DNA from: Desulfuromonadales bacterium
GTDB lineage: Bacteria > Desulfobacterota > Desulfuromonadia > Desulfuromonadales > BM103
NCBI GenBank assembly: GCA_030145205.1
Contig: JAQYVZ010000018.1
Span: 1-64,000, forward strand
Length of the DNA: 64,000 nucleotides
Reading direction: 5' to 3'
A program made the position numbers and the translations under genes. Below are positions 40,781 through 46,581 of this stretch, piece by piece. The notes beneath the pieces are model-generated. The model searched no databases, was not told the origin of the DNA, and worked only from the letters and a program-made list of their open reading frames with translations. Every line of letters begins with the position of its first letter. Positions within the stretch are counted from its first letter, which is position 1.

Positions 40781-43128
<2,348 letters not shown>

Positions 43129-43402
43129 AACCCTTCTTTGAAAACAGCTTACCCACCCTACCAGCAGTGCATCAACCGTAAATACTTCACGTGGCGTTAC
43201 CGACAAAAAACGGCAACGACATTCGCGAAAAACGTCTGTTTTCACGTCCCCCAAAAGACGTTAAAGCCTACCTATCTCTTCGTGAGCAAGGCCCTACAGT
43301 TTTTTTTGAAACGACAAAAACCACACAACACTATGAATTCACACTAATTAGCATACGCGCACCAAAAACACACAAGAATCGCGCGTGTTTACTAATTATA
43401 AT
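43129..43402. other. Intergenic region with two inverted repeats upstream of a sigma-54 promoter
   Basis: No gene. AACGTCT (43231-43237) pairs with AGACGTT (43256-43262) across 18 bases. AAACACAC (43366-43373) pairs with GCGTGTTT (43383-43390) with one mismatch. Their distances of roughly 180 and 50 bases from the expected transcription start make them candidates for activator (enhancer-binding protein) sites. Confidence 0.4.
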
Positions 43403-43417
43403 TGGCACACAGTTTGC
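43403..43417 (+). promoter_or_regulatory. Sigma-54 (-24/-12) promoter
   Basis: TGGCAC-N5-TTGC, with GG and GC ten bases apart, matching the RpoN consensus at every key position. It stands 59 bases before the ATG of the Cys-rich small protein. Confidence 0.8.
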
Positions 43418-43476
43418 GACGAATAGTGTGTCCACATACAACGTACACATGAACTGCAATCAAGGGAGATCAGGAA

Positions 43477-43722
43477 ATGACAGAATGTGAATTGCTGGCA
43501 ACCTGCGGTTTCTACAAAAAATACCAGGACACCCTCAGCCTGGCCTGCCGCGGCTTCATCAAGACCTATTGCCGTGGAGGTCAGATGGACGAATGTGTCC
43601 GCAAGCAGTACCGCATGGAACATGGTCAACCACCGGCAGACGACATGATGCCGTCCGGCCAGACGGTTCCGGAACAGTATCGAGGACAATCAGTTGTCGG
43701 AGGGGACACCAAGACGTCCTGA
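43477..43722 (+). CDS. Small Cys-rich protein of unknown function
   Basis: An 81-residue soluble protein. Cysteines are at residues 4, 10, 24, 32 and 40 ('MTECELLATCGFYKK', 'LACRGFIKTYCRGG', 'DECVRKQYRMEHG'). This pattern (C-x5-C, YC-x-G, C-x-R) resembles small proteins I recall from Geobacter relatives, some fused to signalling proteins; I know no proven function. It could bind a metal or iron-sulfur cluster. GGGAG lies upstream, and a consensus sigma-54 promoter drives it, so expression needs an activator. The C-terminal 30 residues look unstructured. Confidence 0.8.
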   Translation: MTECELLATCGFYKKYQDTLSLACRGFIKTYCRGGQMDECVRKQYRMEHGQPPADDMMPSGQTVPEQYRGQSVVGGDTKTS

Positions 43723-43753
43723 CAAGCGGGGAGAATGGTAGGCAGCGACATGA

Positions 43754-44611
43754 TCAATCGGCATCGTCGAGGTACTTCAGACTTTCCCGGTAGACATCGC
43801 TGCCCGGCACGCCGTACTCCTTTGCGATCATTTTGACGACATCCCGACGTGACAGGTCAGATTCTTCCAGCATCTTACGCAAGGCAACCGTCATGCTGAC
43901 TCGGGGTGCATCCTCTGACGGCGGCAGAATCAACACCAGCTCCCCCTTCACCGCACTTTGCCCGAAATGGGCCAGGGCTTCCGCCGTGCTGCCTCGGAAC
44001 ACCTCTTCATGCAGTTTGGTCAGTTCACGTACGACAACCAACTGACGGTCCGGGCCGGAGACCTCCAGCAGATCGTTGAGGGCCGCCAACAGACGATGCG
44101 GTGCTTCATAAAAGACCAAGGTCTGGTCGAGGCCGGCGCGATCCTGCAGGAGACTACGGCGTGCGACAGCCTTGGCCGGAAGAAAGCCTTCAAAGGTAAA
44201 TCGGTCGGTCGGCACCCCGGCAACACTCAAAGCACCCACCAGGGCGGACGGGCCAGGCACCGCGACGACGCAGATGCCAGCGGCATGACACGCCTGCACC
44301 AGCCGGTAGCCCGGGTCGGCAATCCCCGGCGTCCCCGCATCACTGATCAGAGCAACATCCTGCCCGGCACGGAGTTTTTCCAACAGAGGATCAACTTTCT
44401 GCCGGGCGTTATGTTCATGGTAGGAGACCAGGGGGGTTCCGATCTGATAATGGACCAACAGTTTCCTGCTATGGCGGGTATCCTCGGCGGCGACCAGGGC
44501 TACCTCCTTGAGAACCTGTACGGCCCGGAAGGTCATGTCACCGAGGTTGCCGATCGGTGTCGCGACCACATACAAACAACCACCGGCTGGCGACATCACC
44601 GCTCCGCTCAT
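43754..44611 (-). CDS. rsmI: 16S rRNA (cytidine-1402-2'-O)-methyltransferase
   Basis: A 285-residue tetrapyrrole-methylase-fold enzyme. '[25 protein letters not shown]', '[11 protein letters not shown]', '[19 protein letters not shown]' and 'FEGFLPAK' are RsmI signatures. It modifies the same nucleotide as RsmH (encoded at 37726-38670). Its ATG overlaps the nadE stop (ATGA). Confidence 0.95.
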
Positions 44612-46581
44612 TCCGACTCCACAGCAAACTCAGCAAGAGCCAAAGCTTCCAGCTCGGCCAGCCAGAGCGCCGCACTCGCATCACTCGGCATACGCCAGTC
44701 GCCTCGCGGTGACAGGGCGACACTGCCGACTTTGGGGCCGTCCGGCAAACAGGAACGTTTGAACTGCTGCGAGAAAAAGCGCCGATAGAAGAGTGTGAGC
44801 CAACGACAGATTTCCGCAGGGGTGTAGTCGCCGGCGAACGCCTGGCAGGCCAGAGCGAGAACCTTACGCGGCGCAAAGTGACAGCGCACGACCTGGAACA
44901 GGAAGAAATCGTGCAGCTCGTAGGGGCCGACATGATCCTCGGTCTTCTGGCTGATCTCCCCGTTGACATCGGGCGGCAAGAGTTCAGGAGAAACTGGCGT
45001 CGCACAGACATCTGCCAGAATCTCAGCCGCCCGGCCAGAGAATTCTGCTTCCGCACACCAGGCAATCAGGTAACGCACCAGCGTTTTGGGGATCGAGGCA
45101 TTTACACCATACATCGACATATGGTCGCCGTTGTAGGTACACCAGCCGAGCGCGAGCTCTGACAAATCGCCGGTGCCGATCACCAAGCCACCCTGCTGAT
45201 TCGCCAAGTCCATTAGAATCTGGGTGCGTTCCCGTGCCTGGGAGTTCTCGTAAGTAATGTCGTGACTCTGCGGATCCTGCTCGATATCGGCAAAATGTTG
45301 CCGGACAGCCGCGTCGATCGAGATGGTCTTCAGGTTGACGCCGAGTTCACGGGCCAGCTCGGATGCGTTGTTGCGCGTCCGATCGGTCGTGCCGAACCCG
45401 GGCATGGTCACAGCGAGAATCCCGTCGCGCGACAGGCCGAGCCGATCAAACGCCTTGACCGTCACCAGCAGCGCCAGAGTTGAATCGAGCCCACCGGAGA
45501 TGCCTACAACCACCTGCTTTCCACCAGTATGCGTCAGCCGCTTCATCAATCCGGTGGTCTGGATGGCGAAAATCTCATGGCAACGAGCCTGTCTCTCGTT
45601 CTCACCGGCCGGCACAAAGGGGGTTCGGGGAAGGGGTCGCATAACCGGCGCTGATGTCTCTTCACCCACAACCAGATGAAGGAGATCGTAGCTACCGTCA
45701 GGAACTGACTGGGCATAACCATTGTTGCGCAAACGTTCGTTCTGCAAACGTTCGATATCAATGTCGGCAACGGCCATACCCGTTTCGAATTGGAACCGAT
45801 CCGTTTCAGCCAACAGTTGTCCATTTTCTGCAATCAGGCAATGCCCCGAAAAAACCAGATCGGTACTCGACTCCCCAGGGCCGGCTGAAGCGTAAATATA
45901 AGCCGCCAGACAACGTGCCGACTGAGCTTCAACCAATGCTCGCCGATAGGCGCATTTCCCCAGAGTCTCCGGACTGGCCGACAGATTCAACAAAACAGTT
46001 GCGCCAGCCGCAGCCATCTGTCCACTAGGCGGACTGGCGACCCAACCATCCTCGCAGATTTCGATCCCGATGACAGCGCCGGGAAAGCCCTCTATTGCAA
46101 ACAGCAAGTCGGTGCCAAAGGGGACTTCAATCTCATTGAAGGCGACCAGCGTTTCAGTCGCATCCAGCGCACGGGAGAACCAACGCTCTTCATAAAATTC
46201 AAGAGTGTTCGGCAAAAAAGTCTTCGGGACGACACCAACAATCCGACCCCGGTTGATCACCACGGCGGCATTGAACAGGCGGCCGGCCTGGCGAACCGGG
46301 GCCCCGACCACGAGGGTCAGATCCAGGTTTTGACTAAAGCGGGCAAGCGCCTCAAGGGCGTCTTCGACCGCATCAAGCAGCAAACTTTGATAGAAGAGAT
46401 CGCCGCAACTGTAACCGGTCAGAGACAGTTCAGGGAAAACAACAATCTGGCATCCCTGATCCGCAGCTGCCTCCGCCGCGAACTGGATGCTCTGTAGATT
46501 GGCAGATACGTCGCCAACAAGACACTCGGGCGACACCGCCGCGATTCTCAGCAAGCCAAGCTTTTTGATAGATATGGGCAC
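44608..46581 (-). CDS. nadE: Glutamine-dependent NAD+ synthetase
   Basis: A 657-residue fusion: an N-terminal nitrilase-type glutaminase (Glu in '[11 protein letters not shown]', Cys in '[10 protein letters not shown]') and a C-terminal synthetase with the pyrophosphatase loop '[13 protein letters not shown]'. It makes NAD from deamido-NAD with Gln as ammonia source. I prefer the GTG at 46581: AAGGAGG lies eight bases upstream, whereas an in-frame GTG at 46608 has none. Confidence 0.95.

What the first reader, a model, noticed from the sequence alone, without database searches (positions are those of the whole stretch)
43231..43722. Sigma-54-controlled Cys-rich small protein of unknown function
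A consensus -24/-12 promoter with two upstream inverted repeats drives an 81-residue protein with five cysteines. The tight control and Cys pattern point to a stress, metal or surface-related role not yet described.
Basis: partly seen in the sequence, partly recalled or inferred. Interest (0 to 1): 0.65.

Follow-up and report, generated by a model that had tools for sequence, protein, structure and literature searches.

The report
Unnamed four-cysteine signalling-type mini-protein
A bacterium of the Desulfuromonadales carries a tiny protein with four conserved cysteines, probably switched on through the sigma-54 system; it belongs to an unnamed protein family whose other members include parts of chemoreceptors and messenger-binding proteins, so it may be a small metal- or redox-sensing part of bacterial signalling.

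Summary
The 81-aa ORF (43477-43722) is a real gene with relatives in Desulfuromonadales and, sparsely, in records labelled as six other phyla; cysteines 4, 10, 32 and 40 are invariant in 14 of 14 rows. No Pfam, NCBIfam, PHROG or PDB match is better than E 0.1. TGGCAC-N5-TTGC at 43403-43417 is a good sigma-54 site; a comparable site precedes 6 of 15 strong Desulfuromonadales matches (shuffles of 14 of them average 0.03). Of the two inverted repeats, one is at chance level, one marginal.
[quoted passage not shown] An MCP-like gene lies next to, or one small gene from, the orthologue in 7 of 14 loci, not in the window.
Best reading: a cysteine-ligated metal or Fe-S module, made on demand through sigma-54, feeding chemoreceptor or c-di-GMP circuits. 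Promoter and family are well supported; cofactor and signalling role are inferred.

The parts
43477..43722 (+). 81-aa four/five-cysteine protein gene (P0001)
   Evidence: relatives; codon-position pattern
43403..43417 (+). sigma-54 (-24/-12) promoter TGGCACACAGTTTGC, 59 nt before the ATG
   Evidence: only exact match in the window; similar site upstream of 6 of 15 strong Desulfuromonadales matches, the window included
43465..43468 (+). GGAG, likely ribosome-binding site
   Evidence: sequence; inference
43345..43398 (.). imperfect inverted repeat just upstream of the -24 element; possible activator (bEBP) or IHF region
   Evidence: marginal against shuffles, 1.7%; conservation not shown
   Evidence: 13% of shuffles have one as good

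Best explanation
The gene encodes a free-standing copy of an unnamed four-cysteine domain (C-x5-C ... [YF]C-x-G-x4-6-C-x-R ... P-x-G). The four cysteines most likely hold one metal or an Fe-S cluster (inferred). The domain acts as a small sensing or docking module for chemoreceptors and c-di-GMP effectors: in some bacteria it is part of the chemoreceptor (C-terminal tail) or of a PilZ protein, in others it is a separate small protein, probably cytoplasmic (no signal peptide seen by eye). Here it is transcribed from its own sigma-54 promoter, so it is made when an enhancer-binding activator (unidentified) fires. Shown: gene, family, fusions, promoter conservation in part of the orthologues. Inferred: cofactor, partner, signal, activator.
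For: Relatives in records labelled as seven phyla; C4/C10/C32/C40 invariant in 14 of 14 rows gathered without a cysteine filter. 29 of the 30 loci returned (best matches of 30 of the 44 genomes with a match) carry all four Cys (exception L030). Sigma-54-type sites upstream of 6 of 15 strong matches, the window included; 300 shuffles of 14 of them never reached 6. Two MCPs with the domain as C-terminal tail (67, 70, 72). PilZ fusions: 2 of 4 scanned pass the Pfam cut-off. MCP-like gene next to the orthologue, or one small gene away, in 7 of 14 loci; the five compared are 46-60% identical to one another. The own-genome paralogue L003 lies about 0.85 kb from a REC-PilZ gene. Three other exact sigma-54 sites of this genome precede a molybdopterin-oxidoreductase-like gene, an NMT1-like receptor gene and a PtsP-like gene. 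Sigma-54 sites precede some chemotaxis and motility genes in Geobacter and Desulfuromonadia (PMC2577667, 9 of 110 sites; PMC12316311; passages only).
Against: The window copy has no MCP, TatD- or TcdA-like gene in the 17 kb tested. The MCP neighbour is convergent and belongs to a wider block with TatD- and TcdA-like genes, so adjacency may be shared locus history. 9 of 15 strong matches show no site at 0.88 (one of them, L019, has a weak one at 0.82), 11 of 12 outside the order and 12 of 12 other paralogues show none. The domain is also fused to a uracil-DNA glycosylase and a PRK04286-like protein, so it may be a general-purpose module. No cofactor data, coordinates or Cys-Cys distances. Whether G000 has rpoN, or the MCP elsewhere, was not tested.
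Confidence: 0.45

Rival explanations
1. General metal or Fe-S handling protein (a chaperone, carrier or thiol buffer) with no special tie to motility; fusions reflect delivery or protection of clusters in partner proteins.
For: Fusion to a family-4 uracil-DNA glycosylase (that enzyme family has an Fe-S cluster: PMC9266487, passages) and to a PRK04286-like protein; the Omnitrophota copy L011 lies among NifX-like and MinD-ferredoxin-like genes (identities recalled).
Against: Two MCP and several PilZ fusions, and a recurrent MCP neighbour, are not expected of a general carrier.
Confidence: 0.25
2. Structural zinc domain used only as a protein-protein adaptor, without sensing.
For: Four invariant Cys in a small domain; top AF2 model of the L007 orthologue pLDDT 86.5; very constant C-terminal PPxDDMMPSGQ that looks like a docking peptide.
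Against: None decisive. A pure adaptor need not be under a sigma-54 switch.
Confidence: 0.2
3. The -24/-12 match is a chance string and the gene is driven by another promoter.
For: The exact string is not enriched genome-wide, 6 against 7 for the reversed control; 9 of 15 strong matches lack a clear site.
Against: 6 of 15 have sites (14-row shuffle mean 0.03), beginning 74-135 nt before the start; 4 of the 6 genome-wide exact sites precede same-strand genes.
Confidence: 0.1

Closest known systems
PilZ-domain c-di-GMP effectors (PF07238)
   Same: Distant members of this four-Cys family are fused to PilZ domains, N- or C-terminally.
   Different: The window protein has no PilZ domain.
Chemoreceptors (MCPsignal PF00015) with accessory C-terminal domains
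   Same: Two MCPs carry this domain as their C-terminal tail.
   Different: The window protein is free-standing; the known accessory metal domain CZB (recalled) was not among the hits of the proteins scanned.
Fe-S sensor regulators with C-x5-C spacing, such as IscR and FNR (recalled, not compared here)
   Same: A C-x5-C pair plus two more conserved Cys.
   Different: No DNA-binding domain found, no Pfam match, no fold match.

Membership tests
sigma-54-dependent genes | -24 GG / -12 GC element with correct spacing upstream | tested here: met
   43403-43417 exact; site in 6 of 15 strong matches
sigma-54-dependent genes | dependence on rpoN and an enhancer-binding protein | not testable with these tools
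   needs a mutant; activator not identified
sigma-54-dependent genes | conserved upstream activator sites | tested here: inconclusive
   one marginal inverted repeat; no shared repeat noticed in 12 upstream sequences read by eye
PilZ (PF07238) | PilZ domain | tested here: not met
   no Pfam hit for P0001 up to E 10
Chemoreceptor | MCPsignal domain | tested here: not met
   no Pfam hit for P0001 up to E 10
Any Pfam / NCBIfam / PHROG family | profile match | tested here: not met
   only hits: four unrelated families at E 0.17-0.24, each in 1 of 14 members; PHROGs tried with the window protein only
unnamed four-Cys domain defined here | C4, C10, C32, C40 plus R42 and P-x-G | tested here: met
   14 of 14 in A1; 29 of 30 loci; exception L030
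unnamed four-Cys domain defined here | metal or cluster bound by the four Cys | not testable with these tools
   no coordinates or spectroscopy

The most novel reading that the evidence does not exclude
A previously undescribed redox- or metal-sensing domain that plugs into chemoreceptors in two ways: fused in cis, or supplied in trans as a sigma-54-induced small protein to MCPs that lack a sensor of their own, so that the cell swaps sensory input by transcription rather than by making a new receptor.
Probability: 0.2. Interest if true: 0.75.

Novelty: new variant of a known kind. Interest (0 to 1): 0.5.

Why it matters
It points to an unclassified domain found in chemoreceptors, c-di-GMP effectors, a DNA-repair enzyme and stand-alone proteins, with a concrete handle (its own sigma-54 promoter) for finding out what it senses. 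If true, it would be a detachable sensory part for chemotaxis.

Tried and rejected
Rfam on 42800-44800: nothing at gathering score. Plasmids, phages and viral contigs: no relative. AF2 with the window protein first (81 aa, 14 rows): mean pLDDT 54.9, not used. AF2 with the 67-aa L007 orthologue first (15 rows): best model 86.5, the five models 86.5, 80.8, 71.6, 59.5, 53.1; no Foldseek match at E 0.001 in the PDB, no VIA-align match at Z 2 among 3 chains. Tree of 35 rows unresolved (18 of 32 inner branches open), so transfer between phyla is neither shown nor excluded. Literature: searches returned no paper; the listings of 42, 43, 78, 79, 89, 90 and 92 showed nothing that names this protein or a PilZ/MCP-linked four-Cys domain; of the listed papers I saw passages of five only. 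The library holds open-licence papers only, so this is no proof that it is not in print. Operon with the downstream gene rejected: that gene is on the other strand.

Cautions. The domain regex used in scripts to requires the four Cys, so the invariance in A2 and A3 is by construction; A1 and the 29-of-30 count are not filtered, though the search profile itself favours Cys. A3 holds the G209 MCP tail, so its E 6.0e-17 is circular; with A2 it was 2.4e-10. Promoter weights were set by hand from the recalled consensus after the window site was seen. Orthologues are related, so the sites are not fully independent. Rows left out: L030 (missed by the regex, scored later), L045 (near copy of L044), the fused and distant loci L048-L057, L079-L084, L086 and L097-L099, and L004-L006, which are the same contigs as L017, L020 and L019.

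Full report
Observation. The ORF at 43477-43722 encodes 81 residues with five Cys and a GGAG ahead of the ATG. It stands between an acylphosphatase-like gene upstream and an rsmI-like gene on the other strand (names recalled; ORFs). TGGCACACAGTTTGC at 43403-43417 is the only exact TGGCAC-N5-TTGC in 64 kb. In the genome of 3.72 Mb there are 6 exact sites and 7 of the reversed control, so the string alone is not proof. Four of the six lie ahead of same-strand genes: a gene with a TAT signal and Molybdop_Fe4S4 domain (formate-dehydrogenase-like by recall), an NMT1-like receptor, a PtsP-like gene (PEP-utiliser plus GAF; start about 0.2 kb away) and the window gene. A formate dehydrogenase (fdnG) is in the RpoN table for G. 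sulfurreducens (PMC2725144, passages).

Inverted repeats. The pair at 43231-43262 is matched in 13% of shuffles; the one at 43345-43398 in 1.7%. I noticed no shared repeat in 12 upstream sequences read by eye. These are not evidence of activator sites.

Family. One pattern-based scan of the genome collection with the single protein, which reaches close relatives only, gave 13 loci at 55-71% identity, from records labelled Desulfuromonadales/Deltaproteobacteria, Ignavibacteriae, Phycisphaerae, Bacteroidetes, Alphaproteobacteria, Omnitrophota and Elusimicrobia (most are MAGs). Alignment A1: C4, C10, C32, C40 and D55 D56 M57 M58 P59 S60 G61 Q62 are invariant in 14 of 14; C24 in 13. In the order, 44 of 136 genomes have a family member at E 0.001, and 15 places in 14 genomes are strong matches (E 5.9e-26 or better). 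Elsewhere strong members are sparse: at E 1e-12, 10 of 297 genomes of the phylum, 4 of 247 of a Bacteroidota order, 1 of 246 of the Phycisphaerae record's phylum and 2 of 247 of the Ignavibacteriae record's phylum; each set includes at least one genome already known to have one. No Pfam, NCBIfam or PHROG model fits; the best PDB chains have E 0.33 and 0.38 and unrelated names. The exception to the Cys rule is L030 (G005, at a contig end), which lacks Cys32 and Pro59: a draft-sequence error or a decayed copy.

Promoter in relatives. In the 150 nt before the start, 6 of 14 loci score 0.88 or more on a hand-weighted sigma-54 matrix (window, G001, G020 second copy, G018, G013, G135); 300 dinucleotide shuffles average 0.03 and never reach 6. 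L030, scored later, has none (0.55), so 6 of 15; without the window itself, 5 of 14. G021 has a weaker site (0.82). Outside the order 1 of 12 reaches 0.88 (a Phycisphaerae copy). A second subfamily has TGGAA...TTGC sites: 3 of 6 at 0.88, 5 of 6 at 0.82, but these six are close kin. Other paralogues 0 of 12.

Where the domain occurs. PilZ fusions: six long frames were read and four scanned: L049 (E 9.9e-15) and L053 (5.1e-6) pass the Pfam cut-off, L051 (0.0021) does not, L048 has no hit. Chemoreceptors: G209 (640 aa; HAMP, MCPsignal, and a below-cut-off match to Mcp40H-20_sensor) and G313 (628 aa; 4HB, HAMP, MCPsignal) end in this domain. Also a family-4 uracil-DNA glycosylase (G242; TIGR00758 above cut-off) and a PRK04286-like protein (G1185 scanned, best score below that model's cut-off; G264 has the same layout by eye). 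Domain E-values, each for one genome: 2.4e-10 (G209, profile A2), 5.1e-10 (G313), 9.2e-6 (G242), 1.4e-5 (G1185 and G264); for the PilZ frames 1.0e-7 to 5.2e-6 with A1. The last three proteins named are weak matches and rest partly on the visible Cys pattern.

Neighbourhood. An MCP-like gene lies beside the orthologue, in convergent orientation, in 7 of 14 loci read (L059, L061, L062, L064, L065, L069, L070), in two of them (L069, L070) with a small TSCPD-like gene between. Two of the seven MCPs were scanned: MCPsignal was the only signalling domain above cut-off and no sensor domain was reported; N-terminal hydrophobic stretches by eye. TatD- and TcdA-like genes (names recalled) lie beyond the MCP in 6 of the 7. 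The window (17 kb tested) and L060, L063, L066, L068 have neither MCP nor TatD; L067 has TatD and TcdA without MCP; L058 has TatD at a contig end; L030 was not read. The own-genome paralogue L003 lies about 0.85 kb from a REC-PilZ gene.

Structure. The 67-residue L007 orthologue gives a top AF2 model with three helices (pLDDT 86.5, pTM 0.68; the other four models range down to 53.1), without a detectable relative. I had no coordinates, so whether the four Cys converge is unknown.

Interpretation. Four conserved Cys in a mini-protein of a mostly anaerobic order (recalled) suggest a metal or cluster site (inference). The fusions and neighbours suggest a signalling module. The sigma-54 promoter suggests that the free-standing copy is made on demand; sigma-54 sites precede some chemotaxis and motility genes in Geobacter and Desulfuromonadia (PMC2577667, PMC12316311, PMC3162934; passages only). 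I put the combined reading at 0.45, sigma-54 control alone at about 0.85.

Noticed in passing
L071-L076 (G015, G019, G017, G016, G004, G006): A second subfamily (CEFVLRYVxxVKPHWDDF...) sits convergent to a glycogen-phosphorylase-like gene (identity recalled) and has TGGAA/TGGAG...TTGC sites 59-67 nt before its start.
   Followed up: partly
L011:3251-6650: The Omnitrophota orthologue lies in a cluster of DUF5320, NifX-like and MinD-ferredoxin-like genes (recalled), a hint at Fe-S biology.
   Followed up: no
L012:3325-4634 and L013:4007-5207: In two Bacteroidota the gene follows an ECF-type sigma factor gene (Pfam hit for L013 only) and a small gene, suggesting a different control there.
   Followed up: no
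L145:2557-3333; [quoted passage not shown]
   Followed up: partly
L015:4520-5204: A Phycisphaerae genome has two tandem copies of the gene about 0.46 kb apart.
   Followed up: no
window 43630-43662 (residues 52-62): The C-terminal PPxDDMMPSGQ motif is about as conserved as the cysteines among orthologues and has no explanation.
   Followed up: no
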